DNA from: Fidelibacterota bacterium
Lineage (GTDB): Bacteria > Fidelibacterota > SORT01
DNA: 64,000 nucleotides
Reading direction: 5' to 3'
Assembly: GCA_022571215.1 (NCBI GenBank)
Contig: JACZYG010000001.1
Location: forward strand, 186,001 to 250,000
The notes under the pieces are model-generated. The model was not told the DNA's origin. It ran no database searches and saw nothing but the letters and a program-made list of their open reading frames with translations. Below, in pieces: positions 3,359-36,376 of this stretch. Made by a program: the position numbers and the translations under genes. Position 1 is the first letter of the stretch; every line of letters begins with the position of its first letter.

Positions 3359-4015
3359 TTACATTAAAAACGCAATACCTGTAAGAGAAAGTATTATTCC
3401 GGACAGTACCTCTCCGTATTTCTCAAGAAATTCAAATTTAAATTTATAAGAAGTCAGAAGACCTAATGAAGTCAGCCCGACAAGCAGAACAATCGTTGTC
3501 AGGGCAAACGCCGCCGAAGCAAGCAGCATTACAATAAAACCTTTAGCGACCGTAGCAGAAATCACCGGTAGCACTACAACACAGGGATTAAGACCCATGA
3601 TCACCGCCAAACCCCAGCCGGTTATGTTTCTTTTCTTTCCCTTAAGATTATCTTCATGCGAGTGGGGACCGTGAGAATGTCCGATGTGAAGCGCTCCCCC
3701 TTGTGATTTCAATCCCCACGCGGAATATAATATTCCGAATAATAATAGACCTATGCCTATTACCGAATCCATCTTTTCACCTATTGATGAAGCGGAAGCA
3801 ATCCCTATTGTATAACCGATAATCCCCAATACGATTGATACCACTACATGCAAGGTAGCAGACAACGCGGAAAATGAGAGTGTTTTTCTTTTTGACCAAC
3901 CTTGCGCCTTGCCAACGAGTACGAACGGTAACCAATGATCCGGAACGACCGCATGAAAAAACGCAGTTGCGGAGGCAGATGTTATAAGCACTATACCGGC
4001 GTCAGGCAACTCCAT
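3359..4015 (-). CDS. NicO/UreH-like metal transporter, six-helix membrane protein
   Basis: A 218-residue polytopic membrane protein. The first helix carries the histidine/aspartate motif FHAVVPDHWLPF; further hydrophobic segments follow at about 50-75, 82-100, 130-155, 155-185 and 198-217. Between the two halves is a His-rich loop (HIGHSHGPHSHE, about residues 111-122), as in nickel/cobalt transporters of the NicO/RcnA/UreH group. The second half has GLNPCVVVLPV. These features support movement of a divalent metal, most likely nickel or cobalt, but direction and ion cannot be read from the sequence. Its ATG overlaps the stop of the upstream nucleotidyltransferase gene by one base (TAATG), so the two are translationally coupled although their functions look unrelated. 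Confidence 0.65.
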   Translation of the reverse strand: MELPDAGIVLITSASATAFFHAVVPDHWLPFVLVGKAQGWSKRKTLSFSALSATLHVVVSIVLGIIGYTIGIASASSIGEKMDSVIGIGLLLFGILYSAWGLKSQGGALHIGHSHGPHSHEDNLKGKKRNITGWGLAVIMGLNPCVVVLPVISATVAKGFIVMLLASAAFALTTIVLLVGLTSLGLLTSYKFKFEFLEKYGEVLSGIILSLTGIAFLM

Positions 4016-5247
4016 TAAGTCGGGAATGCCTTAGCGCGCTCCGCGGCAGTATCATTAAACAGATTTTTAAGCAATTTAATTTCAGACGGTTTCAATATAA
4101 CTTTCCGCCGTTTCATAACACGCTGCGCGGTTTCGACGGCTTTATCCAGGATGTGCTCTGTCATACCGTCCGCGCCTCCCCATGAAAATGAAGGAATAAA
4201 TTTAGGCGGGAATCCTCCTCCGTATATATTACATGCGACGCCGACATGCGTGCCTGTGTTAAACATTGTATTTATTCCTACTTTAGAGTGATCTCCCGCA
4301 ACCAGACCGCAATGTATTGTGCCCGTATCGATAAATTTTCCGTCAACATAAAATTTCACTTTTCCATAATTATTCTTAAGATCGCTACTGTTGCTGTCAG
4401 CGCCCAAGTTTACCCATTTACCTATATAAGAATGACCCAAAAAGCCTTCATGTTGTTTATTTGAGTAGGAGTGTATTATAGAATTACTTATTTCCCCGCC
4501 CACCCTGCACTCCTCCCCGATAGAACTGCCTCCGTAAATTCTCGTTCCCGCTTTTATAACGCTGTTCTCCCCGACATAAACTGGTCCTTGTATTACTGAG
4601 TTCGACATGATATGAACACCGGGAGCAATAATAATAGGTCCTTCTTCGGCATCAAGGACAGTTCCCGGTTTTACTTTTACTCCGCTACCGACCGATACCA
4701 TGTCGCTGTTTATGATAGTTACGCCATCATAGAGCTTTCCATCCATCATCGGACTGTCGAATTCTCTCTCTATCTCTTTTCCATTTCCGAGAAATAGATC
4801 CCAGGGATAATCCAGCCATAAACATTCTATTTCCTTTTCATTCAGCGCGGGAAAATCTTCCCTACCAAGTAATTTTCCCCCTGCTGCTTTGATTTTTTTT
4901 AGATTATCGCCGGTCAAAACGGCTACTGCTATCTTTCCGTTATTAGTATATAGCAGGTCATCGCCCGAGCTGATTTTTCCAAGCTCTTCCTCCGAAATAA
5001 CGCACCGTCCGTTAATGAAGATGTATTTATCAGCGGAATATGTATTTATCTCGGCTCTTGGATTTCGCTCCGCCATCACCGAAGCTAATTCATCGCGGCA
5101 ATGCAAAGATATGAACTCATCCCCAAAAATCAGCTGGTATTTTTCCCTGATCGAACGAATCCCGAACCGCAAATCGTAAACGGGACGGAGGTGCGCTAAA
5201 GGGTTCAGATTCCCCGCAAATTCATCTTCAAACATCGCTAATATCAT
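4015..5247 (-). CDS. alternative GlmU: sugar-1-phosphate nucleotidyltransferase with left-handed beta-helix
   Basis: 410 residues with the layout of the Bacteroidetes-type alternative GlmU (putative UDP-GlcNAc diphosphorylase/glucosamine-1-phosphate acetyltransferase). The N-terminus has the family hallmark LRPVYDLRFGIRSIREKY (about 19-36) in place of the usual nucleotidyltransferase GxGxR loop. Residues about 190-370 are hexapeptide repeats forming a left-handed beta-helix (VKPGTVLDAEEGPIIIAPGV, then GENSVIKAGTRIYGGSSIGE), with GHSYIGKWVNLGADSNSSDL near the acyltransferase site. It would supply UDP-GlcNAc for peptidoglycan and lipid A in the cytoplasm. It lies between an unknown gene and the metal transporter gene, which it overlaps by one base. 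Other nucleotide-sugar products cannot be excluded. Confidence 0.75.
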   Translation of the reverse strand: MILAMFEDEFAGNLNPLAHLRPVYDLRFGIRSIREKYQLIFGDEFISLHCRDELASVMAERNPRAEINTYSADKYIFINGRCVISEEELGKISSGDDLLYTNNGKIAVAVLTGDNLKKIKAAGGKLLGREDFPALNEKEIECLWLDYPWDLFLGNGKEIEREFDSPMMDGKLYDGVTIINSDMVSVGSGVKVKPGTVLDAEEGPIIIAPGVHIMSNSVIQGPVYVGENSVIKAGTRIYGGSSIGEECRVGGEISNSIIHSYSNKQHEGFLGHSYIGKWVNLGADSNSSDLKNNYGKVKFYVDGKFIDTGTIHCGLVAGDHSKVGINTMFNTGTHVGVACNIYGGGFPPKFIPSFSWGGADGMTEHILDKAVETAQRVMKRRKVILKPSEIKLLKNLFNDTAAERAKAFPT

Positions 5248-5291: not shown

Positions 5292-5873
5292 CTACTTTTT
5301 CCTGCTTGACTGTTTCAGATCTTCTAACGGTATTAGGTTTGTGTAATCATCCCTGATAGTTCGGTAAATATTTTCCAGACTTGAATTATCCGCCTTCTTT
5401 TCAAGCAGCACATTATAAAACTCTTCCGCCCCATCCCATGCAAAGCCGATAATCAATCCGTCTCCCAATTTCATTGACAGATATGCGGCATATAAATGAT
5501 ATTTTGTATTAAGGTCGACCACTAAATCGTAGGTAGAAAATCCCTGCTCTTTTATCCATGAAGATTTGGGAATTTTCCAAAACCCAAGATTTTCCTCATT
5601 TATAACTATCTTACGCGCATTACTGTCTATCCGATAATCCGCTTCAACATTTTTATGCAATATTACGGTTATACGATTTGAAACGGGGGATTCGAATATC
5701 CCCTTAAACACATACCGCGCGATCCTGAACTCGTTGCGGTCTTCAGGTAAGCAGATAAGAACGCCGGAACTCTCCTCTATACTTCTCCCGATAGAAATTT
5801 GCGGTTTATCCTCATTTTTGTTACGTGTAAACTTGGTAAGCGCATATCCTGCTATATCTTCTCTAAATGACAT
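5292..5873 (-). CDS. conserved hypothetical, possible degenerate heptosyltransferase-like protein
   Basis: 193 residues, no signal peptide and no membrane segment. I do not recognise the family with certainty. The pattern of short beta-alpha units, with SSGVLICLPEDRNEFRIARYVF (about 35-56, broken here by an acidic loop) and YDLVVDLNTKYHLYAAYLSM (about 115-134), recalls the N-terminal Rossmann half of GT9 heptosyltransferases and the small Bacteroidetes DUF6913 proteins, which have the same xDLNxxxxxxxxxLSxKL segment. The C-terminal nucleotide-sugar half is absent. It sits between the glutaminyl cyclase and the alternative GlmU on the same strand, 85 and 44 bases away, which fits a role near the cell envelope but does not prove it. 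No strong ribosome site precedes the ATG. Confidence 0.6.
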   Translation of the reverse strand: MSFREDIAGYALTKFTRNKNEDKPQISIGRSIEESSGVLICLPEDRNEFRIARYVFKGIFESPVSNRITVILHKNVEADYRIDSNARKIVINEENLGFWKIPKSSWIKEQGFSTYDLVVDLNTKYHLYAAYLSMKLGDGLIIGFAWDGAEEFYNVLLEKKADNSSLENIYRTIRDDYTNLIPLEDLKQSSRKK

Positions 5874-5958: not shown

Positions 5959-6873
5959 TTACTCATAAATAAGTTCTATCAATGTTTTTCCCACGGCGGT
6001 AAGGCTTGCGGGACTGCACATCTCGGGGGTATCGAGAGATGTATGCCAGAGATTCACGCCGCCTCGGACGTAATCGAAATCGATAATATTTATCGCTTCA
6101 ATACCGGCGTGTTCGTATAACATCAGATGATCATCCTGGATATAGCTTCCCAATTTCCTCTTGAATTGGGTGGCGCCTGCTCTATCGGCGGCATCCCAGA
6201 CCATTTCAACTAATCTCTTATTTCGCTCAAATGAATACCGTTCTATAGGAATTTCGAGATTAGCATCTCCGACCATATCTATAATTACCGCCCATTCCGG
6301 TTTTTGCCCCGTGAAATTTTTCGCGAAATGTCTCGAACCGAGAAAGTAATTGTCCAAATCACCCTCTTCACCGAAATCTTCGCCATCGAACAGAATCAGA
6401 TCAACACCGATCGGAGGAGGGTTTTCACTAAATACTTTCGCTAGCTCCATCAGCACCGCTACTCCGCTCGCGCCATCGTTTGCGCCGAGTAAAGGTTGAT
6501 TTCGTTTCGAAGGATCTTTGTCCCGGTCCGAACGCGGTCTTGTATCCCAATGCGCTCCTATCAATACTCGTTTTGCGGCGGAAACTCCAAACGAGGCGAT
6601 GATATTTGATAAGTCGTATGATATTCCCGTTTCGTTATCAAGGTGTGTGAAATCTTGCACCCTTACACTCTCCGCAAACATTTTCATTTCAGCTAACAGA
6701 TAATTAAAAGTATTTTTATGCCCTCTCGATCCTGGATTTCGCGGGCCGAAATCACACTGCTTGACCAAATAATTAAATGCGCTCTCACCGTCAAAATCCG
6801 GTTTATTCCCGCTACATGAGATTGCTGTCAGAAAAAGTAGACTGGTGAGCAGCGTTGAGACGGACAGTTTCAT
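5959..6873 (-). CDS. type II glutaminyl-peptide cyclotransferase, lipoprotein (M28 family fold)
   Basis: 304 residues from the ATG at 6873, chosen because GGGGAT lies 8 bases ahead and the protein then begins with a clean lipoprotein signal peptide (LFLTAISC, Cys20). The fold is that of M28 zinc enzymes, and the motifs match type II glutaminyl cyclases such as the Porphyromonas gingivalis enzyme: CDFGPRNPGS, AHWDTRPRSD, LGANDGASG, LFDGEDFG, FLGSRHFA, IIDMVGD, QDDHLMLYEHAGI and LWHTSLDT. These supply the zinc ligands (Asp, Glu, His) and the catalytic acid. Such enzymes cyclise N-terminal Gln of exported proteins to pyroglutamate in the periplasm. The gene follows sprA directly: the sprA stop is 5 bases upstream. 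A plain aminopeptidase is the alternative, but the SRHFA and LWHT motifs favour the cyclase. Confidence 0.82.
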   Translation of the reverse strand: MKLSVSTLLTSLLFLTAISCSGNKPDFDGESAFNYLVKQCDFGPRNPGSRGHKNTFNYLLAEMKMFAESVRVQDFTHLDNETGISYDLSNIIASFGVSAAKRVLIGAHWDTRPRSDRDKDPSKRNQPLLGANDGASGVAVLMELAKVFSENPPPIGVDLILFDGEDFGEEGDLDNYFLGSRHFAKNFTGQKPEWAVIIDMVGDANLEIPIERYSFERNKRLVEMVWDAADRAGATQFKRKLGSYIQDDHLMLYEHAGIEAINIIDFDYVRGGVNLWHTSLDTPEMCSPASLTAVGKTLIELIYE

Positions 6874-6877
6874 ATGA

Positions 6878-9800
6878 TTATCCCCTGATAGCAATGTTCA
6901 CCGTAACACCAAAATCTCGAAAGCTCGTGGAGCCATGTGTTGTCTCTGTCTTCCCGAATTCGAAGAATATACCTCCGTTCAATTTAGAGTTGAAGGAATA
7001 ACTCATTTGCGGATGTAATGACCATCTTTTCGAGAAATTAATAGGGGCTAATTCTCCATCGGTTGAACCAGTTCTTGTTAGCGTTTCGCTCTTACCGTTA
7101 TCATAGGTCAATGAAAAGGATACCTGGTTATCAAGTTTGAAATCCCTCAAGAAGAAAAGAGGAATATTCAATCCCCCGCGTTTTGAGTAGTTTGCTGTTA
7201 TCGAAATATTAGAAGTATTCTGAAGTCGTGTACCTTCCCTTATCTTTCCGAAAAAATTGGAAATTGATGATGATTTGTTAAATCTGACTGTTGCCGTAAT
7301 ACTATTATTGAAATTAAAGGTCATACCCAAGAGCGGTTGCCATGATTTAGAATAATCCACGCTAGTTATCTCTTTCCCTACCGAATCTGTCTGTGTCTCT
7401 TGTATAAACCTGATGGTCTCCAATCCTTTTTCATTTTCCTTTCCTCCGAATCCATGTTCAAGACTCACACTTTTGGTAAATCTGTCAAATAATGGCAGTT
7501 TTTCAAGACCCGAAAAACGTATGTTCCATGACGGAAAAGGGAAACCATCTCTTCCTGTTACACCTATCGGGAAAAAATCTCTTGTCTTTGTTATATTCAA
7601 ATTACTTGCAGATGTTTGGTTTCTTCGTTCGCTTTGTGAATACGTAAAATTGAGCGTAATCCGCCTACTTATGTTTAATCCGCTTCTCGTGGAAAAATTA
7701 GTCGTCAACCCCTTTTTGTTTTCAGCAACTAATAGTGAATCTCTTTTTATGTTTGGATTTTCAGTAAATCCAAATTTATAAGCGTATCCCGGTTCTCCTA
7801 ACAGAGCAGGGTTCGATAAGTTTTTGCCCTTAGAATAGGTGATATTCACCGGCTGTAATTTATTTGATAACGCTGTTAAGAGTTCGCCTATAGTAGGGTT
7901 GCCTTTTTCCTTTTTAGTCGCTTCGTCTTTTCCGCTTTTCTTGACTGCAGATCTATTCCCTCTACCTCTCGTTGAGCGGCGACTTGATTGTTTTCTGCTC
8001 TTTCCTTTTTGAGACTTAGATTTATCTTTGGAGAAAATTGACATAAATTTTTTCAGATCAAAATTCAAATTAGTGTTAATTTGATTTTGACTGCTAACAT
8101 CGTTGCTGCTGCGTTGCCTGACATGCTGAAGGCGGTACGAACTGCTGTAACCAAAGCTTGTCGATACCCATTTGAAAACTTTAGGATTCCACTTTGTGGA
8201 AAAATTTTCATTTGCGTTCGTAAGCGTTCCGAAATCCCCTAAAAACAGATCAGATTTATTCTGTCTCAAATCACTGAGATCATTTGTCCAGCCTCTTCCA
8301 TAATCCAAAGTAAGCGACTTAAACAAAGGAAAACCGGTTTTGAAACCTCTCACCATATTGAATTTATAGGATTCCGTAGGAACTCCACGGCGAGGAATAT
8401 TATTGCTCTTCGATTCGGTCGCTTTAATATTCCAGTTGAACGAATTCGGATAATAATTGAATTTTTCGTCTCCTAATTTCTTGCCAATCCAGGGAACGGG
8501 TCTAACCCAGACAAATGGTTTTATCTTTGATTTACGTTTAATAGGTAAATTATATGTAAATCCTCCATTGTAAGCAATTGAAGATCTCTTTGCTATTTGG
8601 TTGTTGCTCCCGTTTTGATTTAAAATGTTTAAATTCGCTGTGGATTTATCAAGTGTATATTTTATCATTCTTGAGCGTGATTTACTGTTTTTCTTGAATG
8701 ATATTCCAAATTTCTTTTGGTTATTAAGGTTTTTAATAGAATCGGGAGCTGCGCCCTGTACCCTAATATCTGTTCCCGGCAGGTATTTGGGAGTCTTAAC
8801 CGAGCGGCTTATGTTAAAGGTTATTGGAATTGAAAGTCCCCATCGAGCCGGAAGAAGTTTGTTCGACCGAAACGTATTATTGAACCTATACGAAAAACTT
8901 TCTACGCTACTACCGGCTTTACCTACTTTTTCCTGGATACGACGAAAATCCGCATCCTCCCTCGTGACATTAAAGTTCATACTTCCAAGGTCGGCAATTT
9001 TAAGTGTCGCGCTCACTCGCGCCGCTATTCCCCCTTCTCTGCTGATTTCAGACACACGAAGCTCGTCAATCCAGATTTGACCTGTAATCTGCGCATCCCC
9101 CTTATTCCTGATTCCGACTATAATCTGCTTCAGCCTAGTTAACGACGGGGAATTCACTATTCGTACTTTTTTACCTTGCCCGAGGTTAAAGGACTCTCCG
9201 TCTTGCAGTTTCAGCTGTGTCAGTTCATCTAAGTTGATATCTATGAGATTTCTTTCGTCCCACCCCGGATAGACCGGCTCCGACAGCTCGTAGTAACTGT
9301 CATCGTTTCTACCCAATCTCATGAAAAATTCCACCGAAGAACTGTCTTGTCCGAAATGTTTATCCCCGTGAACGAACATCTTGAGCCTGCCGTATCTGAT
9401 TATATCTTGCTCGTTAAAGAATACTTTCCTTGCAGCTCCGATAGCGCCCGGAGGCAGATCATCAAATTTAAGAACTAATGATTGTTCTTTCGCTCTTACC
9501 CTTGTTATTCTGTCTTCAACTCCTTCAACTCCCGGGGGAGGTTGAAGGCTCGGATCGCCATTCTTCCGGTTTCCATCATAAATATCGTTGTTATCTTCAG
9601 TATTTACAACCGTTACCGCAAATGAAGAATCGCCTTTGTCGAATTCTAACGAACCCTTAAGTTTTACTCCCAACTCCTGCCACTCGTTCGCCACCATCTC
9701 GATAGTCGCTATCTGCACCAGTTTCTCGCCTGTTAGACCCGTTATCCAAATTCTCACATATTGTATATCTTGTAAATTCACGTTCGGACTCGACTTATAG

Positions 9801-12800
9801 TTAAATGAGTTTATCGGCAGACGATAAAGACGCCATCCTTTTTTATTATTTCTTCCACCGGCAATGAGATGATTGTCCCTGCCGTCTAACCAGAACGAGT
9901 ATTCAAAAAAATCACTTCTTGTGTCAAGAAAAGTGTTCCTATTAAGGTCCTCGGAATCAGGGATTCTTCCGCCTTCATCATTCGCGTTCCCCTCTGTTCC
10001 ATTTATTCTGCGATAATCAAGGATTCTGGCGTTCGAATCAAATTCCCAGTTGTCCGCATTAGGATCCGGGTTGGCGTTTGGATCATAACCCTCCTCCTCC
10101 TCGTCAAAAAGTCCGTCAATTCCTGTATCCTCACCTTCATCAACTATATTATTCCCGATAGTCCCGGCCACAGGTATATCTTCAGTATTGTATACACTGT
10201 CGTTATTAGCGTCTTCACTGATATGGCCTATATCAAAATTGACCTGTCCTTCGTCACCGTTGATCCAAATTTCGATAAATTTGGTTTGGGTCTGGTCAAA
10301 AAAACTTGCGGGAAGAGCTCTCATAACGCCTCCCCATCGTTGCTCTTGCGCAATGGAACTGTCCGGCACATCTCTTTGGTTATTTTTTGTATCGATTATG
10401 ATGTTCAGCACGTCTGTGAACAGATTTCCCGCTTGACCCTGATTCACATCCCTGTCCTCCCATATATCTGTCGTAAACACTCTAGCAAACGGATTGTACC
10501 AGTAGGTAAAAGCTCTCTCATTATCCGTTTTAAAATCAGGTGGAGATGCTTTATACCAATGTTTTCTCGTTATTGTAAGAGATGTAATTCTCTTACTTCC
10601 TTCAAAATCATCTAAATATGCCACTCCCTGATTGTCACCCGTTGTAGGACTGTTAAGCGTATTGTTGTTAGGTATTATCTTGGCGATCTCGCCTTCCATA
10701 CTGAATGAGGAGGGTTGATCGGTTTTAATCAGGGGAAGAGCGTTAACGCCCCTCGAAATAAAATTAGGCTTCGCCGAATATTTGCCGTTAAAATCCCATA
10801 ACATATTTCGTATTGGCTCTTCACCGACCCGCACCTTTTGGTCTATTGTGCTTTTACTGAAGAAAAGAAATGTTGCTCCGAAAAACGAATTCTCGTTTTC
10901 GCCAAATCGATACTCCGCTCTCGTCCCCAACAATGATTTTTTATCTAATTGGAAGAGCTGATTATTTTCGTATTTTATTTCTAAGTTGGCTCCAGGATCA
11001 GTGGCTCCTTCCTTAAGAAGAGTTAACTGCCCTGTAAAAGTGTCTATTGTATAGTCTGATCCTTTATTGAGCACGACCCCATCCAAAGTGACCACTTCGC
11101 TTCCCTTTATAAAGTTTAACCCGAGACTTATTGTCGAGGAGCGATTTTTATATGACACAATAATTTTAAATTTGCTTGCCGCTTGCCGTACAGGTTGCGA
11201 AGAAGTGTCATAGATCGCCTGACTATAGAAAGTTGAGTCTAATGCCTTTGGAGTATAAAACGGCCTCAATGCCGGAAACCATAGCTCTCCACGTTGTAAA
11301 TTGATTATCGCTTCAGTATCTATATCGAAAATTTCATCAGGTTGTGAATTACCGTTTACATCAAGGGAGTCGAGCCCGAATAACTGAAGAAAATTTGTGC
11401 CTTTTGAATTTCTTTCTTGAGGCTCTCCGGAGGAACGATCATCAACGATTTTTAGTTCAAATCCCTCTTTGTTTATATTTGTCGCTCCAAGGTAATAAAC
11501 ATTTTTAAATTCCAAATTCCATGTCGGATCTGTAGGGAAGGGATTCTTCCCCTTTATAAGTTTTAAAGCTATCAATGAATCTTGCCCTGCACCGGGAGTC
11601 ACCAATTGTCCGCCAAATACATCTCCTCCAAGATCAATATAGCTTATCGCAAGCACATCATCCTCACTCATATATGTATTCATTCTAATGAAGCCATGAT
11701 TTTCGCTTACTTCGTAATCTATATTTTTTATCAATCGTTTGAACCGTTGCTTTACGCCCTTGCTTTCGGTCAGATCAAGAATTTGTTCGGGGGAATTCGG
11801 ATCGGGTACGGCTATCGCTTCAAAGCTTCCCGTTTCCGTGCCGCTTGCCGTTAAATAAACTTCAATATTTTGAATTCTCCTGTTTGCGGGTTTAGCGCGA
11901 AATAAAGTCTGAATAGTCGGATACAACCTATCTCTATAGTAATCATCAAGAAAGAAATACGTGTTTCTCATATAACCGTAATCATTTATGTTCTTAATCT
12001 GCGACGTTGCACCGCCATCCAGTGTCAGCTTTTGCTTTTTCCCTCTCTCAACACTTACCACTGATGTAATATCCAAACCGCCAATCTTCAAGATTGATTT
12101 TAACCCGAACAATCCTTGATTTCGCCCGCCCGATACCGCAAATTGAGTCCCCGGGAGAGAGAGGTCAATGTTACCTGCATCTATTCGTTTGATGATTTCG
12201 TCTTCATTTCCCACGTAACGGATCTTCAATGCGTTATCAAACTCAAAATCCCTTTCGGAATCCTGATCGACAAGCAGGCTTATCTTATCGCCTATTGTCC
12301 CTTCAATGTTGAATTGCTGCTTTTGGTCAAGTTTAAAGGATGTGCTCTGGCTCTGGGCAAAGTTCAGGGCTACCGTGCTCCTGTTCTCTTTCCGGATACC
12401 GCCCTTTATATTGATATTACCGGTCACTCGCAGAGCTACGTCCTGTCCCGCAATCGTTCCGCCGACGATTTCAATAGCCCCTCCACGTCCCGCTTCTCTC
12501 TCTCGTTTTATTACTTCCTCTAATCTTTCTGACCAAATTTTTGTAAGATTACGATCTTTGGCGAGCAAAAAATAATCTTTCAGGCTCATGACGGTAGGAG
12601 CTTGAATATCTTTTCCATGATACGTTCTTCGAAATATAAAATACGTTCCTGAAGAATCCATGGTTACCACCGAAATGATCAATGGTGATTTAAATGGCAA
12701 TATCGCCCCATGAATAACAATATTCGAATCAAGAGAGGACCAATAAAGTCCTTCGTAACTCTCTTCAAACACGGGAACAAATCCGGGAATGGGGTATTGG

Positions 12801-12937
12801 GGCAGCTGTCCATTTTCCTGCGCATGCAGCGTAGGAACTTGGAGGATCAGTAAAACAAATAATATCAGATAACAGCGACACGCGGGAATTAATCTCTGCC
12901 TGTCGCTTCTGTTGTTTTTTTTAATACTTTTATTCAT
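6878..12937 (-). CDS. sprA: SprA, outer-membrane channel of the type IX secretion system
   Basis: 2019 residues, in the size class of SprA/Sov (about 2,000-2,500). A basic N-terminus and hydrophobic segment end in THLHA-type cleavage with Gln at +1 (LHAQENG). The body has repeated long beta-barrel motifs, a Gly/Asn-rich linker (about 960-1040, with acidic calcium-binding-like runs such as EDANNDSVYNTEDI), the segment VAYLDDFEGSKR typical of SprA, and a barrel-like C-terminus ending FGVTVNIAIRG. SprA forms the giant outer-membrane pore for proteins with type IX sorting tails. It is flanked by rdgB upstream (70 bases) and the glutaminyl cyclase downstream. No other type IX gene is in the window, although a likely cargo (M14 peptidase at 40.7 kb) is. 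A Lys/Arg/Ser-rich stretch near residues 1640-1680 is an unusual local feature. Confidence 0.93.
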   Translation of the reverse strand: MNKSIKKNNRSDRQRLIPACRCYLILFVLLILQVPTLHAQENGQLPQYPIPGFVPVFEESYEGLYWSSLDSNIVIHGAILPFKSPLIISVVTMDSSGTYFIFRRTYHGKDIQAPTVMSLKDYFLLAKDRNLTKIWSERLEEVIKREREAGRGGAIEIVGGTIAGQDVALRVTGNINIKGGIRKENRSTVALNFAQSQSTSFKLDQKQQFNIEGTIGDKISLLVDQDSERDFEFDNALKIRYVGNEDEIIKRIDAGNIDLSLPGTQFAVSGGRNQGLFGLKSILKIGGLDITSVVSVERGKKQKLTLDGGATSQIKNINDYGYMRNTYFFLDDYYRDRLYPTIQTLFRAKPANRRIQNIEVYLTASGTETGSFEAIAVPDPNSPEQILDLTESKGVKQRFKRLIKNIDYEVSENHGFIRMNTYMSEDDVLAISYIDLGGDVFGGQLVTPGAGQDSLIALKLIKGKNPFPTDPTWNLEFKNVYYLGATNINKEGFELKIVDDRSSGEPQERNSKGTNFLQLFGLDSLDVNGNSQPDEIFDIDTEAIINLQRGELWFPALRPFYTPKALDSTFYSQAIYDTSSQPVRQAASKFKIIVSYKNRSSTISLGLNFIKGSEVVTLDGVVLNKGSDYTIDTFTGQLTLLKEGATDPGANLEIKYENNQLFQLDKKSLLGTRAEYRFGENENSFFGATFLFFSKSTIDQKVRVGEEPIRNMLWDFNGKYSAKPNFISRGVNALPLIKTDQPSSFSMEGEIAKIIPNNNTLNSPTTGDNQGVAYLDDFEGSKRITSLTITRKHWYKASPPDFKTDNERAFTYWYNPFARVFTTDIWEDRDVNQGQAGNLFTDVLNIIIDTKNNQRDVPDSSIAQEQRWGGVMRALPASFFDQTQTKFIEIWINGDEGQVNFDIGHISEDANNDSVYNTEDIPVAGTIGNNIVDEGEDTGIDGLFDEEEEGYDPNANPDPNADNWEFDSNARILDYRRINGTEGNANDEGGRIPDSEDLNRNTFLDTRSDFFEYSFWLDGRDNHLIAGGRNNKKGWRLYRLPINSFNYKSSPNVNLQDIQYVRIWITGLTGEKLVQIATIEMVANEWQELGVKLKGSLEFDKGDSSFAVTVVNTEDNNDIYDGNRKNGDPSLQPPPGVEGVEDRITRVRAKEQSLVLKFDDLPPGAIGAARKVFFNEQDIIRYGRLKMFVHGDKHFGQDSSSVEFFMRLGRNDDSYYELSEPVYPGWDERNLIDINLDELTQLKLQDGESFNLGQGKKVRIVNSPSLTRLKQIIVGIRNKGDAQITGQIWIDELRVSEISREGGIAARVSATLKIADLGSMNFNVTREDADFRRIQEKVGKAGSSVESFSYRFNNTFRSNKLLPARWGLSIPITFNISRSVKTPKYLPGTDIRVQGAAPDSIKNLNNQKKFGISFKKNSKSRSRMIKYTLDKSTANLNILNQNGSNNQIAKRSSIAYNGGFTYNLPIKRKSKIKPFVWVRPVPWIGKKLGDEKFNYYPNSFNWNIKATESKSNNIPRRGVPTESYKFNMVRGFKTGFPLFKSLTLDYGRGWTNDLSDLRQNKSDLFLGDFGTLTNANENFSTKWNPKVFKWVSTSFGYSSSYRLQHVRQRSSNDVSSQNQINTNLNFDLKKFMSIFSKDKSKSQKGKSRKQSSRRSTRGRGNRSAVKKSGKDEATKKEKGNPTIGELLTALSNKLQPVNITYSKGKNLSNPALLGEPGYAYKFGFTENPNIKRDSLLVAENKKGLTTNFSTRSGLNISRRITLNFTYSQSERRNQTSASNLNITKTRDFFPIGVTGRDGFPFPSWNIRFSGLEKLPLFDRFTKSVSLEHGFGGKENEKGLETIRFIQETQTDSVGKEITSVDYSKSWQPLLGMTFNFNNSITATVRFNKSSSISNFFGKIREGTRLQNTSNISITANYSKRGGLNIPLFFLRDFKLDNQVSFSLTYDNGKSETLTRTGSTDGELAPINFSKRWSLHPQMSYSFNSKLNGGIFFEFGKTETTHGSTSFRDFGVTVNIAIRG

Positions 12938-13007: not shown

Positions 13008-13601
13008 TTATGATGAATACTTGGCATTCAAAATTCGCAGCAGCTCCTGAAACGCTATTCCTCTGTGGCTGATCGTTCTTTTCTCCTCTCGCGTCAATTC
13101 TCCGAATGTCTTCTCAGAATTCGCCGATTGAAATATCGGATCATAGCCAAATCCGTTGCTTCCCCTCTGTTCACTTGTTATCAATCCCTCTACCTCTCCC
13201 TTTGCTGTAAAATGTTCACGTTCATCAACGAGTACCGCAATTGTTTCAAACCTGGCTGTTCGTTCTGCTTCAGGAACGTTATCCAGGTTTTTCAGGAGCA
13301 TTTTACGGTTTTCTTCGTATGAAACATTTTCTCCCGCATATCTTGAAGAACGTACGCCGGGTTCTCCATTCAGCGCATCAACGAATAGACCTGTATCATC
13401 TGCTATTGCCGGCAGTCCCGTTGCATTCGCAGCGCTTTCTGCTTTTAACAAGGCATTCTCTAATAAGGTTTCACCCGTTTCTTCAACTTCTGGCGCTTGA
13501 GGGAATTCACTTAATGAGCTGAGTTCAAAACCGCTCCCTTCAAATATTTCCCTGATTTCTCTAATTTTATCTTCGTTCCTGGTAGCTATAACGAGTTTCA
13601 T
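13008..13601 (-). CDS. rdgB: XTP/dITP diphosphatase (RdgB/HAM1 family)
   Basis: 197 residues, full length for the family. Motifs are all present: VIATRNEDKIREI at the N-terminus (substrate loop), ADDTGLFVDALNGEPG (about 66-81, catalytic Asp), SSRYAGE, GSNGFGYDPIF (about 147-157) and SHRGIAF near the end. The enzyme hydrolyses non-canonical purine triphosphates (ITP, dITP, XTP) to monophosphates in the cytoplasm and so keeps them out of DNA and RNA. It is first in the minus-strand run leading into sprA; the 70-base gap to sprA has no terminator, so co-transcription is possible. Metabolically it has no evident link to secretion. Confidence 0.95.
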   Translation of the reverse strand: MKLVIATRNEDKIREIREIFEGSGFELSSLSEFPQAPEVEETGETLLENALLKAESAANATGLPAIADDTGLFVDALNGEPGVRSSRYAGENVSYEENRKMLLKNLDNVPEAERTARFETIAVLVDEREHFTAKGEVEGLITSEQRGSNGFGYDPIFQSANSEKTFGELTREEKRTISHRGIAFQELLRILNAKYSS

Positions 13602-27176: not shown

Positions 27177-28934
27177 TCATTCAACCACCCTGACTGTAAT
27201 CCCCCAGTTGAACGGATCGTATGGTTGCGACGCGTTCCAGTCATTAAACGAATGTGAACCATCGGTTTCGTATCGTACTTCATACTCTCCCGGCTCTAAT
27301 ATGATGGTACCGTCAAACATTCGATTTTTTTTCGCTCCTCCTGCGTGTTCTGTAATTCTGTACGACATCTCCCAAATAGTTTTCCCCGAATGAAGATCTT
27401 CAATCCACCCGTAATCATACATCTGTCCTCTGCTTCCTTCTCCAATCGCGTATATTCGCACTCTTTTCCGCTCATTCAACTTAAAACGAGCGGAGATCAT
27501 ATCATTATTACCCACGTTAATAACGCTGGCTAAAATATTTTCATCTTCCTCTTCTTCATATTCTTCGACATCGTTTGCATCAAATTTTGAATCAATTGAA
27601 ATCAATCTCAAACCCCACGCCTTTTGATCGGATGGAGGCGATGAATTCCACATTCGATAAGAATGCGAGCCGTCAGTCAGATAATACGCAATGTAATTAC
27701 CTTTCTTGAATCTAACCACGTCGTCGAATACTCTGTTCTTTTCCGCTCCGCCGGCGTGCTCCGTATCTCTGTACCTCATTTCCCAAACCCGTCCCCTGTC
27801 CGACGCATCGATTATCCAGCCGTAATCGGCCATCTCTCTGTTTACTCCCTCTCCAACGCAGTATATGTTCAAGTCCATATCTTTTTTAAGTTTGAACCCG
27901 TACGAAACTACTTCGCTGTTTCTCACTTTAGTCAGATTAACCACTGTTCTTTCTTTGAAAAATTTCTCGCTATCAAACATTTCTACATTCTTCCTGTCCT
28001 TGCGGTTTTTCAAATCGACCCTGATACCCCAAAATTCGGGATCGTAAGGAGGCTGGGAGTTCCATCTTCTCGGCATATGCGAATCATCCGTAGAATACAC
28101 GACAGAATACTTGCCCTTGGGAAGTGTCAGAGTGCTTCTTTTCATGCGGTTCTTCCTTGCCCCGCCGGCTTCCTTAGATTTCCTGTATGATAATTCCCAA
28201 ACGCGCTCTCCTGTAAGCAGGTTTTGTATCCAGCCATAATCGTGATTTCCGTTTCTTGTAAGCTCTCCTATAGCATAGACCTCAAGCTCAACGGTTCGGT
28301 TGGCAATAAATCCTACGCTCTTATATAAATTCTTTTTGTCCCCGCTAATCCAAATAAACGCATCGTCTTTTTGCTTTTCTTGCAGCGTATAAACATCTTC
28401 TCTGCTTAGTGTTTCACCATCGCCTTTTATAACTATTTTAAATTCCCTGTACAGATCCCACATCTCTTTCTTGTAGTGATCACGATCTCCTCTAAACCAT
28501 CCCTTGAAAAATGAACTAAGAAATTCTCCTAAATCATCAATGTTGAAATCCGAGAATGACCTGAGAGGATAAGAAGCGTAATACACTTCATAAACACCCT
28601 TCGGAAGAGAGACATCATCAGAAAACTCTAACAATCCCCGGCTTCTTCGTTTTGAATCAGCTTCGGAAAGATCCCAGACAACCTCTCTCGTATCTGCGTC
28701 AAGAATCCAACTATTACCTAAAAGTACTCTGTTTCCGCCATCTCTGTAATAAAATCCAACTGCATCAATTACTATATCTTGATCTGAGTTTAAAACAAAT
28801 CCTTCCATCCTAACATCTTCGGGGTATATATCGTCTATCTCTATAAGAGATTTCTGACCGAATAATGAAATTAAATTGAATGAAAGAACGAACAGCAACA
28901 GTGATATAGTACTAAATATGGTAGGTTTGGTCAT
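27177..28934 (-). CDS. secreted protein with four tandem ~100-residue modules of unknown family
   Basis: 585 residues. A signal peptide ends at about residue 26 with Gln at +1 (SLFGQKS). Four related modules follow: a divergent one at about 41-170, then 205-306, 340-445 and 475-585. The last three share the order VYAIGEG, DYGWI, GxxVWExxYR, HAGGAxKNR, a Gly/Asp-rich turn, YxTDGSHS and WNSxPPxDxxxWGI. Each looks like a small beta-sandwich, with a likely aromatic surface from the conserved Trp. A Glu/Asp-rich linker (EEYEEEEDENI, about 457-467) precedes the last module. I do not recognise the family. The number of copies and conserved Trp/Asp/His pattern suggest a binding role, such as carbohydrate or protein recognition at the cell surface. 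Confidence 0.8.
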   Translation of the reverse strand: MTKPTIFSTISLLLFVLSFNLISLFGQKSLIEIDDIYPEDVRMEGFVLNSDQDIVIDAVGFYYRDGGNRVLLGNSWILDADTREVVWDLSEADSKRRSRGLLEFSDDVSLPKGVYEVYYASYPLRSFSDFNIDDLGEFLSSFFKGWFRGDRDHYKKEMWDLYREFKIVIKGDGETLSREDVYTLQEKQKDDAFIWISGDKKNLYKSVGFIANRTVELEVYAIGELTRNGNHDYGWIQNLLTGERVWELSYRKSKEAGGARKNRMKRSTLTLPKGKYSVVYSTDDSHMPRRWNSQPPYDPEFWGIRVDLKNRKDRKNVEMFDSEKFFKERTVVNLTKVRNSEVVSYGFKLKKDMDLNIYCVGEGVNREMADYGWIIDASDRGRVWEMRYRDTEHAGGAEKNRVFDDVVRFKKGNYIAYYLTDGSHSYRMWNSSPPSDQKAWGLRLISIDSKFDANDVEEYEEEEDENILASVINVGNNDMISARFKLNERKRVRIYAIGEGSRGQMYDYGWIEDLHSGKTIWEMSYRITEHAGGAKKNRMFDGTIILEPGEYEVRYETDGSHSFNDWNASQPYDPFNWGITVRVVE

Positions 28935-29126: not shown

Positions 29127-31214
29127 ATGTTAATTAAGCAGGTCGTTGCATCTATTTTCATCGTTTTATCCCTTTACGGTTTTGCCGGCGCGCAGATAGC
29201 GCCCTGGCACTATCAAACTCTGATTTCAGAAGAGCTCGTAGATAAGTTTATCGGAGAGATATCCGGTGAAATTGCCATGAGCCACGTTTATGAAATGGCG
29301 GCATATAACAAGGGCAGAAAACTTGAGGAGTATCAAACTACTTTCCGGGAAGCGTCATACGTTTATAACAAAGCAATAGAATACGGTTTCGACACCGTAG
29401 AGATTGAATACTTCGAGAGCGATTCCATTTGGGATGGAGAGGTAGGAGAGCTTTGGGAAATTTCGCCTAATCTGACCGAAATAGCGGATTATGACGACCA
29501 AAAGGCGGTTCTTGCTGTCGGCAGCAAATCTACAGAAGTCACTGCTGAACTTATCTACGTAGGAAATGGCACGAAAAACTCTGATTATGAAGCTGTTGAT
29601 GTCAAAGGCAAAATTGTTCTTGGCTACGGTGGTACGAATTCACTCCACAAAAAAGCCGTCTTGGAACGGGAAGCAGCAGGCGTAATATCGTTTGCTTCGA
29701 TCCATCCTGTTTTCGATCCGGACCAGATTCCCTGGTTCGAAATTAGCAAGGATAGCGCAAAAGGTACTTTTGCTTTTAATTTAGGCTATCGAAGAGGTAA
29801 CGAGCTTAGGGCGCGACTTGAAAAAGGAGAGAAAATCACAGTTCGAGCAACGGTGAAATCATCCATACAGCCGTATAAACATAATATTGTTCATGCTTCT
29901 ATCAAAGGAAGAGAGTTTCCCGATGAATCAATTATATTTAGCGCTCATCTCTTCGAGGGAATAGCCAAGCAGGGAGCGAACGATGATATAAGCGGAAGCG
30001 CAGCTATATTAGAAATAGGACGCGCCTATCTTCAAATGATCAAAGACGGTTCACTTGAGCGACCGCGCCGAACCATTCATTTTATCTGGGTACCCGAAAT
30101 ACATGGCACAGAACCGTGGATAAAGAAACATCTCGATCTGGTGAAAACGATGCTCGTAAATCTGAATCTCGATATGGTCGGCGCCCATATGAGCAAAAGC
30201 TTGGGCAGTTATAATCTTCAGCGGACTCCATACAGCCGGCCGAGCTATCTCAATGACGTGCTTCAAAACGTCATAGAATATGTAGCGCATACGAACAGGG
30301 AGATTTTGAATAATAGACCGCGATTGTTCACAAAACCTATAATTGCGCCTACAGGTTCGCGCGATCCATTTCAATATAACATAGACTATCATTATGGTTC
30401 GTCGGATCATATTATGTTTAATGACTGGGGGGTCGGCGTTCCCGGCGTTATGCCGATAACCTGGCCCGACATGTACTACCACTCTTCTTCCGACCGGCCG
30501 GTCAATATGGACCCGACACAAATGAAGCGCGCTGCGTTCATCAATGCCGTCTCAGGTTATGCCATCGCAAACGCTGATGAACGAATGGCGTTGAAAATCG
30601 CAACCGACTCATACTCTTATGGATTAGACCGGCTCGGCAAAGAATATAAACGTTCTACGGAAATGCTGAATTCATCTGAACCGGAAAACCTTACTGCGGC
30701 ATACAAACGCGCGTCCAATGTCTTAAAACAGGCTATCATCCTGCAATCTGAAACGCTGAGATCCGTGACAGAATTGGCTAAAGGAAGCAGAAGCCTCAAA
30801 AATTACGTTTCTTCGCTTGTTAAAGATATAAGTAAAACAGGAAAAGAAATGGAGAAAAGGCTTTTCAGTTATTACAAGCAAACAGCTAAAGCGATGAATC
30901 TGAGAGCTGTCAAGCCCTCTCTCACAGCCTCGGAACGTAAAGCCCGCAAGATCAGACCTAAACCGACTCTCCTCGTGGAAGGATATATGGGAACCGACCT
31001 TCCTTCCACCGCCCTGATAAGCAAAGAAACCGAAAAAAAGTTCTCGGCTATCGGCAAGAAAAAAATAAGGGAACTCCGAAGACTTATAGACGGTAAGCGC
31101 AACGCCCTCGAGATAACTCAAACTTTAGACGCTCAATTCGAGTCAGCCACCGAAGCTGAAGATGTAATGAACTATCTCGAACTCCTTAAACTCTCGGGAC
31201 TCGTTAAGTTGTAA
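29127..31214 (+). CDS. M28-family zinc aminopeptidase, secreted, with PA-like domain
   Basis: 695 residues with a ribosome site AAGGAG. A signal peptide ends at about residue 22 (GFAGAQIAP, Gln at +1). A PA-like domain (about 130-210) has TAELIYVGNGTKNSDY and VKGKIVLGYGG. The M28 domain then shows SAHLFEGIAKQGANDDISGSA (His and Asp ligands, about 272-292), WVPEIHGTEPW (catalytic and metal Glu), NLDMVGA (Asp) and MYYHSSSDRPVNMDP (final His). The C-terminal region (about 560-695) is helical and charged. The enzyme should remove amino acids from peptides outside the cytoplasm. It is transcribed alone, followed by a bidirectional terminator. Confidence 0.83.
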   Translation: MLIKQVVASIFIVLSLYGFAGAQIAPWHYQTLISEELVDKFIGEISGEIAMSHVYEMAAYNKGRKLEEYQTTFREASYVYNKAIEYGFDTVEIEYFESDSIWDGEVGELWEISPNLTEIADYDDQKAVLAVGSKSTEVTAELIYVGNGTKNSDYEAVDVKGKIVLGYGGTNSLHKKAVLEREAAGVISFASIHPVFDPDQIPWFEISKDSAKGTFAFNLGYRRGNELRARLEKGEKITVRATVKSSIQPYKHNIVHASIKGREFPDESIIFSAHLFEGIAKQGANDDISGSAAILEIGRAYLQMIKDGSLERPRRTIHFIWVPEIHGTEPWIKKHLDLVKTMLVNLNLDMVGAHMSKSLGSYNLQRTPYSRPSYLNDVLQNVIEYVAHTNREILNNRPRLFTKPIIAPTGSRDPFQYNIDYHYGSSDHIMFNDWGVGVPGVMPITWPDMYYHSSSDRPVNMDPTQMKRAAFINAVSGYAIANADERMALKIATDSYSYGLDRLGKEYKRSTEMLNSSEPENLTAAYKRASNVLKQAIILQSETLRSVTELAKGSRSLKNYVSSLVKDISKTGKEMEKRLFSYYKQTAKAMNLRAVKPSLTASERKARKIRPKPTLLVEGYMGTDLPSTALISKETEKKFSAIGKKKIRELRRLIDGKRNALEITQTLDAQFESATEAEDVMNYLELLKLSGLVKL

Positions 31215-32890: not shown

Positions 32891-34248
32891 TACTCACCTC
32901 CGTCATAGCTTAAATTAACTACAGTTTTGTTCTCATTCGTAAAGTATTTTTTCGTGACCATTTGTATATCTTCAGCCGTGACCCTGTCATAAAGTTCATA
33001 TACCCGATTCACGGTCTCCGGGTCGCCTGTCAAGCCGATATAATGCGCAAGAGTGCCTGCAACGCTCTTCGGGCTGTTCAACCCCATCGCAAATTGATAT
33101 TTCATGTGAGATTTAATAGATGCAAGGCGTTCCTCGTCAACAAGAACATTTTTCACATCCTCAAGCGCCTTATAGATCTCCTGCTCAACCATCTCAACAT
33201 TCGCAGTCTCTTTCACGCGTGTAAAGATCATGAACATAGTAGCGTCTCTTTTGTCCCCCGCGCCTCCCTGAATGAAATCCACTAACTGTTCATCGATGAC
33301 CAATTTCCTGTATAGAGGCGAAGATCGCGAAAATACCACCTGCGAAAGCAGGTCGAGCGCAGGCATATCAATCTCTCTGTCGCTGAATGCCGGACCATGA
33401 TAACCGATAGCCATAATCGGCAGTGTTGGATTATCCCATCCTAATTTTTCTCTTTTTTCTTCTGTTTGAGGCGCTTCCTGAGGAATTTCGGGCTGACCCG
33501 GTCCACTTTCCCAATTACCATAATACTTTTCTGCGAGAGCCATCAATGATTCATGATTTACATCTCCGACCACAAGAATTACACAGTTTTCAGGTCTATA
33601 GTAGGTGTCAAAAAAATATAAACTGTGCTCGTACTGATTCGGCATATCCTCTATATCTTTTAGAAAACCTATAGTAGTATGCTTATATGTATGAGTTTGA
33701 TATGCCGTATCCCGAAGTTTTTCTATCAGGGGAAGAAACGGACTCGTTATGCTCTTTCGATATTCCCCAAGAACCGCTCCCGCTTCCTTTTTGAAATCCT
33801 CTTCATCGTATTTCAAATTCAGAAACCTATCAGATTCAATATCCATTATCGCCTCTAAAGCGTCAGAACTGGAAAGCGAGTGGTATGCGGTAATATCATC
33901 ATTTGTGAAGGCATTGTGGTCTGCCCCCAATCCCTTCAAAATATCGTTGTAACCTGTCGAAGAATACTTTTCAGTGCCTCGAAACATCATATGCTCAAAG
34001 AAATGAGCGAATCCCGATTTTCCCGGTTCTATTTCATTCCGCGAACCGGTTCGGACTATTGTGTAAAATGCGATCAATCCTGGACTGTCGAATTCTACCG
34101 ATACGACCTTCAGCCCGTTTTTCAAGACTCCTACATTTATTGGATATTGAAAGATCTTTTCTCCCCCTTTAGTATCCGCTGGAAAAAATGTAAATAAAAG
34201 CGGGATCAGAGCGAAAAGAGACAATAGACTGCTTTTCGAAAAATTCAT
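32890..34248 (-). CDS. M16-family zinc metallopeptidase, active subunit
   Basis: 452 residues with GGAG ahead of the ATG. The N-terminus is a signal peptide (about 1-28). The inverted zinc motif is FAHFFEHMMFRGTEKY (about 81-96: His, Glu, His), and the third ligand Glu lies in EAGAVLGEYR. A second M16 domain follows. The enzyme should degrade peptides of limited size in the periplasm. It is paired and coupled with the inactive subunit gene downstream. Its start faces the TRAP cassette, so the 160-base divergent gap must carry both promoters. Confidence 0.92.
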   Translation of the reverse strand: MNFSKSSLLSLFALIPLLFTFFPADTKGGEKIFQYPINVGVLKNGLKVVSVEFDSPGLIAFYTIVRTGSRNEIEPGKSGFAHFFEHMMFRGTEKYSSTGYNDILKGLGADHNAFTNDDITAYHSLSSSDALEAIMDIESDRFLNLKYDEEDFKKEAGAVLGEYRKSITSPFLPLIEKLRDTAYQTHTYKHTTIGFLKDIEDMPNQYEHSLYFFDTYYRPENCVILVVGDVNHESLMALAEKYYGNWESGPGQPEIPQEAPQTEEKREKLGWDNPTLPIMAIGYHGPAFSDREIDMPALDLLSQVVFSRSSPLYRKLVIDEQLVDFIQGGAGDKRDATMFMIFTRVKETANVEMVEQEIYKALEDVKNVLVDEERLASIKSHMKYQFAMGLNSPKSVAGTLAHYIGLTGDPETVNRVYELYDRVTAEDIQMVTKKYFTNENKTVVNLSYDGGE

Positions 34249-35344: not shown

Positions 35345-36376
35345 TTGCTCAAATCAAATCATAGGACATTCTTAATTCTTTTTTCAATTTTACTTTTGTC
35401 AAATCTCGCAATTGGGCAGAAACGTATTAAGATAAAGATGGCTACGCTTGCTCCGAAGGGTTCCCCCTGGCATGAGGTGCTAATGAAGATGGGGCGGGAA
35501 TGGCAAGAGGTCACTAACGGAAAAGTGATCCTTAAGATCTATCCGGACGGTGTGGCGGGAGACGAAGATGCGATGATACGGAAAATGCGTATAGGACAAT
35601 TCCAGGCTGCCGCTCTGACGTTCAACGGTATCGCATTTATTGACCAATCAGTAAACGCATTCGCTATTCCTATGCTATACGATAATTATGAGCAGCTCGA
35701 TAAGGTTAGGGATATTGTTGAAGGAGAGATAAAACGCAGAATTGAAGCAAAAGGTTTTATTCTGCTCGCATGGGCTGATGTCGGGTGGATTAGATTTTTC
35801 AGCACTGAACCGATGCGAACTCCGGAAGAATTAAAAAAGATGAAAATGTTCACCTGGGCGGGTGATGAGGTTGCTCTCAGAATGTGGAAAAACGCCGGCT
35901 ACCGCGCTGTACCGCTTCAGCCTATTGATATTCTCACCGGATTACAGACCGGTCTCATCAACTCGTTTTCCTCACCTCCTTTCGGGGCGCTTTCTTCTCA
36001 GTGGTTCGGTATAGCCGACCATATGTTAGACCTGCCGTTTGCCCCGTTCACGGGAGGATTCGTCATTGACAAGAAGACATGGAACAAAATCCCCGAGGAG
36101 TATAAACCCGATCTCATTGCCGCCGCGGCTAAGGTAGCGAAGAAAATTAAAGACGACCTGCGTCATGGAGACCAGGCGTTTATAGATGCGATGGTGGAGC
36201 ACGGTCTGACAGTTCATGAGGCGAATGCCGAGACGAGAACCCTTTGGAGGGAGACTGCCCGGACTTTTTATGACGATCTTCGCGGTGATTTTGTTCCGGC
36301 GGATATTTTCGACTGGGTCGTCTCTCTAAGTGACAGCATCAGGTATGTAGATTCCGGAAATACATCTGGTCACTGA
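35345..36376 (+). CDS. dctP: TRAP transporter substrate-binding protein DctP
   Basis: 343 residues from a TTG start with GGAG 8 bases ahead. A signal peptide is followed by Gln at +1 (NLAIGQKRIK). DctP hallmarks are KMATLAPKGSPWHEVLMKM (about 31-49), a helix-rich two-lobed body, and GLQTGLINSFSSPP with the conserved Arg replaced by a local pattern around residue 150 (WIRFFSTEP). The protein binds organic acids (or another anion) in the periplasm and passes them to the DctQM permease. The helper TatT lies just upstream and the fused permease 26 bases downstream. Confidence 0.9.
   Translation: MLKSNHRTFLILFSILLLSNLAIGQKRIKIKMATLAPKGSPWHEVLMKMGREWQEVTNGKVILKIYPDGVAGDEDAMIRKMRIGQFQAAALTFNGIAFIDQSVNAFAIPMLYDNYEQLDKVRDIVEGEIKRRIEAKGFILLAWADVGWIRFFSTEPMRTPEELKKMKMFTWAGDEVALRMWKNAGYRAVPLQPIDILTGLQTGLINSFSSPPFGALSSQWFGIADHMLDLPFAPFTGGFVIDKKTWNKIPEEYKPDLIAAAAKVAKKIKDDLRHGDQAFIDAMVEHGLTVHEANAETRTLWRETARTFYDDLRGDFVPADIFDWVVSLSDSIRYVDSGNTSGH

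What the first reader, a model, noticed from the sequence alone, without database searches (positions are those of the whole stretch)
5959..12937. Glutaminyl cyclase encoded directly behind sprA, with Gln at +1 in four local exported proteins
The gene following sprA matches type II glutaminyl-peptide cyclotransferases (AHWDTRP, GANDGASG, SRHFA, LWHT). In Bacteroidetes a 'Q-rule' is known: signal peptidase I often leaves Gln at the new N-terminus, which the cyclase turns into pyroglutamate. Here four proteins predicted to be cut by signal peptidase I put Gln at +1: SprA (LHA|QENG), the repeat protein (LFG|QKS), the M28 peptidase at 29.1 kb (AGA|QIA) and DctP (AIG|QKR). The physical link between the channel and the cyclase is what is unusual.
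Basis: partly seen in the sequence, partly recalled or inferred. Interest (0 to 1): 0.68.

Follow-up and report, generated by a model that had tools for sequence, protein, structure and literature searches.

The report
Secretion channel paired with capping enzyme
In a little-studied phylum of marine bacteria, the gene for the outer-membrane channel of a protein-export machine is followed within a few bases by the gene for an enzyme that caps exported proteins at a leading glutamine; the pairing is kept across the whole phylum, and a large share of exported proteins do start with glutamine, a rule thought to be confined to the Bacteroidetes.

Summary
Window 5959-6873(-) encodes a type II (animal-type) glutaminyl cyclase (QC). 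Its AlphaFold model matches Bacteroides, Tannerella and Porphyromonas QC crystal structures (TM about 0.9), and every catalytic residue checked is present. It starts 4 nt after the sprA stop codon. The genome is not Bacteroidota but Candidatus Neomarinimicrobiota (Fidelibacterota). Gln at +1 is genome-wide: with a home-made cleavage-site scorer that ignores the +1 residue, 37% of sites have Gln at +1 against 5% expected. Other members of the phylum give 35% against 4%, Bacteroidota 55% (positive control), E. coli 6% against 6%. So the 'Bacteroidetes Q-rule' operates in this phylum. The sprA-QC pair is no local curiosity: QC follows sprA in every phylum genome where the upstream DNA could be read (about 65), median gap 2.5 nt, usually inside a T9SS cluster. 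It also occurs in Calditrichota, KSB1, Zixibacteria and Krumholzibacteriota MAGs, but not in typical Bacteroidota. No paper in the held library describes it. Best reading: QC is the general N-terminal capping enzyme, co-expressed with the T9SS translocon. T9SS cargo shows no extra Gln, so a T9SS-specific role is not supported. Whether the linkage is functional or operon inertia is open.

The parts
5959..6873 (-). Type II glutaminyl cyclase (glutaminyl-peptide cyclotransferase), predicted lipoprotein (MKLSVSTLLTSLLFLTAIS|CSGN)
   Evidence: Pfam M28 106 bits; closest solved structures are Bacteroidota QCs; AlphaFold pLDDT 90.6, top 50 Foldseek hits all QC-type; catalytic residues invariant; start at ATG 6873
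6878..12937 (-). SprA/Sov, type IX secretion outer-membrane translocon; signal peptide ends LHA|QENG (Gln codon about 12818-12820)
   Evidence: TIGR04189 865 bits; PDB 6h3j 2e-77
13008..13601 (-). RdgB-like ITP/XTP pyrophosphatase, first gene of the conserved rdgB-sprA-QC order in this phylum
   Evidence: sequence homology across loci; function name from general knowledge of the family
5292..5873 (-). hypothetical protein, 193 aa, downstream of QC in this family only
   Evidence: no Pfam or NCBIfam hit; homologue at the same place in G195 (L174)
4015..5247 (-). GlmU-like UDP-GlcNAc diphosphorylase/acetyltransferase (TIGR03991), downstream gene in this family
   Evidence: 421 bits
921..3239 (-). 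TonB-dependent receptor with carboxypeptidase regulatory-like domain; exported, no Gln at +1 (ASG|SRPAE)
   Evidence: Pfam Plug and CarbopepD_reg_2
27177..28934 (-). repeat protein with predicted cleavage LFG|QKS
   Evidence: reading
29127..31214 (+). M28-like peptidase with predicted cleavage AGA|QIA
35345..36376 (+). DctP-like solute-binding protein with predicted cleavage AIG|QKR
40689..43463 (-). carboxypeptidase-like protein with C-terminal YPNPFNP-type sorting domain, a local T9SS cargo candidate; no Gln at +1 (AHS|ANGK)
   Evidence: reading; weak match to the operon CTD protein profile

Best explanation
This is a genuine glutaminyl cyclase that caps proteins exported by Sec. Signal peptidase I cuts so that Gln becomes the new N-terminus of a large share of its substrates, including periplasmic and outer-membrane proteins, T9SS parts and T9SS cargo. 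The periplasmic cyclase, a lipoprotein in about half of the lineages, converts that Gln to pyroglutamate and shields the protein from aminopeptidases. That is the Q-rule pathway known from Bacteroidetes, here present in Candidatus Neomarinimicrobiota. The cyclase gene is the second cistron of an old, probably translationally coupled sprA-QC unit inside a T9SS gene cluster (rdgB-sprA-QC-[prmA]-lipoprotein-CTD protein-PorV-PorQ), which most likely keeps capping capacity in step with production of the outer-membrane export machinery. Shown: homology, fold, catalytic residues, Gln+1 excess, conserved overlap or short gap. Inferred: cyclase activity, pyroglutamate, co-expression and its purpose.
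For: QC identity: D, E-D, D, D-D-H, W-H-T invariant in 76/76 phylum sequences; Asp-Gly rather than the Asp-Asn of aminopeptidases, and Trp before His, the discriminators given in PMC7948796. Only one clear type II QC and no type I QC in the genome. Gln at +1: own genome 17/63 with the first scorer against 4.2% background, p=7e-10; 37% against a null of 5.3 +/- 1.8% with a fixed scorer blind to +1; other members of the phylum 35% against 3.9%; Bacteroidota 55%; E. coli 5.7% against 6.0%. Linkage: sprA directly upstream of QC in 28/28 informative loci, in 19 of 20 family representatives (the other, L169, begins near a contig edge) and 23/23 further loci; gap median 2.5 nt, 56 of 70 within 20 nt. 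sprA in 226/245 and QC in 222/245 phylum genomes. T9SS cluster membership. Linkage in other phyla.
Against: No enzyme assay or N-terminal mass spectrometry. The signal-peptide scorer is home-made; the true Gln fraction is probably higher, but the figure is not SignalP-grade. rdgB and prmA, which have no evident link to secretion, are also conserved neighbours, so synteny alone does not prove functional coupling. T9SS cargo-like proteins have no more Gln+1 than other exported proteins (38% against 37% in the own genome, 40% against 34% elsewhere). The Phe four residues before the WHT Trp, shared by Bacteroidota and animal QCs, is replaced in many phylum sequences, by Gly in the window.
Confidence: 0.78

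Rival explanations
1. Operon inertia: QC and the Q-rule are real, but the sprA-QC adjacency is an ancestral gene order without functional coupling to type IX secretion.
For: rdgB (nucleotide sanitation) and, in several families, prmA (ribosomal protein methylation) are conserved neighbours too; QC-prmA also occurs in Ignavibacteria, Balneolota and other MAGs without sprA; cargo has no excess Gln; PMC5837995 argues pyroglutamate does not steer T9SS sorting.
Against: The sprA-QC gap stays at a few bases over a phylum with about 45% QC identity while downstream genes are rearranged; in Zixibacteria, KSB1 and Calditrichota the pair persists though rdgB was not seen beside sprA.
Confidence: 0.4
2. 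Dedicated T9SS role: the cyclase primarily modifies SprA itself or T9SS cargo, and the genome-wide Q-rule came later.
For: QC sits within the T9SS cluster across the phylum; four Zixibacteria MAGs have sprA-QC, yet none of about 8 effective predicted sites in the Zixibacteria and Krumholzibacteriota sample has Gln+1.
Against: Only about 18 of 29 readable SprA proteins in the phylum have Gln+1 (my reading); no enrichment in sorting-domain proteins; the Zixibacteria sample is small.
Confidence: 0.15
3. The enzyme is a zinc aminopeptidase of family M28, not a cyclase.
For: Pfam calls it Peptidase_M28; some homologues were first deposited as aminopeptidases.
Against: Single-zinc QC signature (Asp-Gly, Glu-Asp, Trp-His), nearest solved structures are QCs; Gln+1 excess in the same genomes.
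Confidence: 0.04
4. The Gln+1 excess is a composition or predictor artefact.
For: Home-made predictor.
Against: The +1 residue is not scored apart from a penalty on Pro; Gln is near background at other positions; E. coli through the same pipeline is at background; Bacteroidota are recovered as positive.
Confidence: 0.03

Closest known systems
Bacteroidetes Q-rule pathway with PgQC (Porphyromonas gingivalis PG2157; PMC5837995, PMC10653852)
   Same: Type II QC with the Asp-for-Glu202 zinc ligand, lipoprotein in many members, Gln at +1 of a large share of signal peptidase I substrates.
   Different: Another phylum (Neomarinimicrobiota); the gene is the cistron after sprA, whereas PgQC heads an operon with PG2158 and hemG; QC is a lipoprotein in only about half of the lineages and otherwise often carries Gln+1 itself.
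Type IX secretion system core (SprA/Sov, PorV, PorQ, CTD proteins)
   Same: sprA, PorV/PorQ-family proteins and CTD-bearing proteins present and clustered.
   Different: Cluster includes a QC, RdgB, sometimes PrmA and an unnamed lipoprotein; this cluster composition is not reported in any paper found.
Animal QC (human QPCT and QPCTL)
   Same: Fold and catalytic residues (TM about 0.7).
   Different: About 20% identity; zinc ligand Glu202 is Asp here.

Membership tests
Type II glutaminyl cyclase | fold closest to solved QCs | tested here: met
   AlphaFold pLDDT 90.6; best matches 7d1d, 3tc8, 6qro, 6qql
Type II glutaminyl cyclase | zinc ligands and catalytic acids (human D159, E201, E202 or Asp, D248, H330) | tested here: met
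   invariant in 76/76 phylum sequences; E-D form as in PgQC
Type II glutaminyl cyclase | Asp-Gly after the metal Asp and Trp before the metal His (aminopeptidases: Asp-Asn, Tyr) | tested here: met
Type II glutaminyl cyclase | Phe four residues before that Trp (PgPhe294) | tested here: not met
   Gly in the window, variable in the phylum, Phe in 14 of 15 named Bacteroidota; shared by PgQC and animal QCs, lines the site but is not a catalytic residue, so I do not treat it as defining
Type II glutaminyl cyclase | cyclises N-terminal Gln | not testable with these tools
   needs an assay
Q-rule pathway | strong excess of Gln at +1 of signal peptidase I substrates genome-wide | tested here: met
   37% against 5%; E. 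coli 6% against 6%; about half of the own genome sampled
Q-rule pathway | majority (published predictions above 48%) of substrates have Gln+1 | tested here: inconclusive
   27-37% by crude scorers; the same scorer gives 55% for Bacteroidota; many missed sites visible
Q-rule pathway | pyroglutamate present on mature proteins | not testable with these tools
   mass spectrometry needed
Type IX secretion system | SprA/Sov translocon | tested here: met
   TIGR04189 865 bits
Type IX secretion system | PorV/PorQ family proteins | tested here: met
   several over the NF033709 cut-off in the genome; tandem pair at G000:C1:177981-179816
Type IX secretion system | cargo with C-terminal sorting domains | tested here: met
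   by motif only
Type IX secretion system | PorL/PorM motor, PorK/PorN ring, PorU sortase | not tested
   not searched

The most novel reading that the evidence does not exclude
The sprA-QC pair is the ancestral state of the FCB superphylum and the cyclase began as part of the type IX secretion apparatus; the global Q-rule of Bacteroidota and Neomarinimicrobiota evolved from it, while lineages such as Zixibacteria keep the linked cyclase without a Q-rule.
Probability: 0.15. Interest if true: 0.8.

Novelty: new variant of a known kind. Interest (0 to 1): 0.62.

Why it matters
The Q-rule is described as exclusive to Bacteroidetes, and its coincidence with type IX secretion has been judged probably not mechanistic. 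A phylum-wide sprA-cyclase operon outside Bacteroidota, in genomes that follow a Q-rule, gives a gene-order link between the two and makes the question testable: which came first, and does uncoupling them harm secretion? It also widens the range of bacteria expected to carry pyroglutamate-capped envelope proteins to a mostly uncultured marine phylum.

Tried and rejected
A self-training cleavage-site model drifted onto the edge of the hydrophobic core and was discarded; the reported figures use fixed parameters blind to +1, with an independent cruder scorer as check. Excess Gln specific to T9SS cargo: tested, no difference. Conserved Gln+1 of SprA as a special target: not universal. Type I (plant-type) QC as the real cyclase: absent. 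Aminopeptidase reading: rejected on residues and fold. Promoter and terminator scan gave no more than chance. An apparent exception to the linkage in family f21 (L157) was an ORF-calling artefact at a contig edge. The QC tree does not resolve phylum relations well enough to prove a single origin of the linkage: linked QCs cluster far more than shuffled labels, but at least 3 changes are forced.

Full report
What is in the window. Two minus-strand genes meet at 6.87 kb. 6878-12937 encodes SprA/Sov, the type IX secretion (T9SS) outer-membrane translocon (TIGR04189, 865 bits against a cut-off of 200; PDB SprA 6h3j, E=2e-77). Four bases after its stop codon, an ATG at 6873 opens a 304-residue protein; the last bases of sprA hold an AGGGG ribosome-binding-like sequence. 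The protein has a lipobox (TAIS|C).

Is it a glutaminyl cyclase? Sequence search puts it nearest to the Bacteroidota QCs 3tc8, 4fuu/7d1d, 6qro and 6qql. Several of these were deposited as aminopeptidases, but PMC7948796 assigns 3tc8 and 4fuu to QCs with one zinc. The residues corresponding to human D159, E201, E202 (Asp here, as in PgQC), D248, D305 and H330, and the Trp before that His, are invariant in 76 of 76 sequences of the phylum and nearly so in 80 sequences from many phyla (the residue correspondence is my reading of the alignment). The Asp-Gly step that distinguishes QC from aminopeptidase (Asp-Asn) is also kept in the phylum. An AlphaFold model (pLDDT 90.6) matches Bacteroides, Parabacteroides, Tannerella and Porphyromonas QCs best (TM about 0.9), and all 50 listed hits are QC-type. 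One feature differs: the Phe four positions before the Trp, shared by Bacteroidota and animal QCs, is Gly here and variable in the phylum. The genome has one clear type II QC and no type I QC.

Which organism? The window lies in a 2.56 Mb draft genome whose phylum holds 245 species genomes in the collection. Contig lengths identify several phylum members as Candidatus Neomarinimicrobiota/Marinimicrobia (G024:C33, 151178 bases = DEAI01000016.1; G047:C1, 642810 = CABZHT010000001.1; G052:C1, 97569 = CACKGC010000001.1). NCBI ranks name it Fidelibacterota. So this is outside Bacteroidota, where the Q-rule was described; PMC10653852 says 'exclusively in the Bacteroidetes phylum', and PMC5837995 reports scattered high values such as Ignavibacterium album but does not mention Marinimicrobia.

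Is Gln at +1 more than chance? I took 1.26 Mb of the genome (and the window), called ORFs and predicted signal peptides. A simple scorer gave 17 Gln at 63 sites (27%) against 4.2% in the following residues, p=7e-10, with a sharp peak at +1; reading the list showed many true Gln sites missed by a few residues. A second scorer, with fixed -3/-1 and distance weights and no use of +1 (only Pro penalised), gave a weighted Gln fraction of 37% in this genome (null 5.3 +/- 1.8%, none of 2000 randomisations as high), 35% in other members of the phylum (null 3.9%), 55% in Bacteroidota loci as positive control and 5.7% in E. coli K-12 (null 6.0%). Four sampled families of the phylum each exceed their null. 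A Q-rule thus operates in this phylum, as far as sequence can show. Sorting-domain proteins do not differ from other exported proteins, in line with the conclusion of PMC5837995 that pyroglutamate is not a T9SS sorting signal.

How general is the sprA-cyclase link? QC was found in 222 and SprA in 226 of 245 genomes. sprA lies directly upstream of QC in all 28 informative loci, in 19 of 20 family representatives (the other, L169, starts near a contig edge) and in 23 of 23 further loci chosen from the remaining families: about 65 different genomes, no exception. By eye, the coordinates agree for roughly 100 genomes that have both on one contig; I saw none with the two apart on one contig. The gap has a median of 2.5 nt; 56 of 70 lie within 20 nt, often as stop-start overlaps. 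In most families the order is rdgB-sprA-QC-(prmA)-lipoprotein c5-CTD protein c3-PorV/PorQ-PorQ-polysaccharide deacetylase. In the window's own family the cluster has split: c5-c3-PorV-PorQ sits 12 kb away on the other strand (G000:C1:175569-179816).

Outside the phylum (names), sprA is immediately upstream of QC in MAGs of Calditrichota (3), Zixibacteria (4), KSB1, Krumholzibacteriota, one labelled Bacteroidota and one unnamed. It is not in Bacteroides luti, Anaerophaga, Saccharicrinis and other Bacteroidota, nor in the sampled Ignavibacteria, Cloacimonadota, Poribacteria, Fibrobacteres or Armatimonadota. A Saprospiraceae MAG has sprA 2.4 kb before two tandem QC-like genes (L251). QC-prmA is shared with Ignavibacteria and Balneolota. 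The QC tree broadly follows phyla and clusters the linked genes, compatible with an old linkage lost in several lineages, but it is not well resolved.

Interpretation. The best-supported mechanism is the known Q-rule pathway. Signal peptidase I exposes Gln and a periplasmic cyclase caps it, which in P. gingivalis protects exported proteins and is essential (PMC10653852). A supporting detail is that where the phylum's QC has no lipobox Cys it often has Gln at +1 instead (for example CMG|QNAPP, IYS|QTVLY, VFG|QEIPQ; my reading). Why QC is tied to sprA is inferred: most likely co-expression with the outer-membrane export machinery. Operon inertia is a serious rival because rdgB and prmA are conserved neighbours too. 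If that holds, the linkage may predate the Q-rule.

Literature. No paper in the held library contains SprA, glutaminyl cyclase and type IX secretion together, and the Q-rule paper mentions neither operon nor SprA. Searches found no description of the operon or of a Q-rule in this phylum. Subscription papers are not covered.

Noticed in passing
G000:C1:175569-179816 (L044), about 6-10 kb before the window: Block of lipoprotein c5, CTD protein c3, PorV-like and PorQ-like genes that elsewhere in the phylum directly follows sprA-QC.
   Followed up: yes
L263, L265, L268, L276, L278, L281, L282 and others (QC N-termini): In lineages where QC lacks a lipobox, the cyclase itself often seems to have Gln at +1, as if Cys+1 and Gln+1 were alternatives.
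   Followed up: partly
L186, L212, L240, L247: Zixibacteria and Krumholzibacteriota MAGs have the sprA-QC pair but no Gln+1 among about 8 effective predicted cleavage sites; needs full proteomes.
   Followed up: partly
L251:1-10882: Saprospiraceae MAG with sprA 2.4 kb upstream of two tandem QC-like genes: a possible Bacteroidota relic of the linkage.
   Followed up: no
L147:9226-10053: Conserved 275-aa predicted lipoprotein (c5) in the T9SS cluster with no Pfam or NCBIfam match.
   Followed up: no
G165:C9:2506-9399 and G011:C52, C32: Genomes with an additional sprA away from QC; the one in G165 matches TIGR04189 over its full length at 2362 bits, far above the rest of its phylum, suggesting contamination or transfer from Bacteroidota.
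   Followed up: no
L193:1-5424: MAG labelled Bacteroidota with sprA read as two ORFs separated by a stop, followed by QC and prmA.
   Followed up: no
window 31364-34248: Two adjacent M16-like peptidase genes, one a predicted lipoprotein and one apparently secreted.
   Followed up: no
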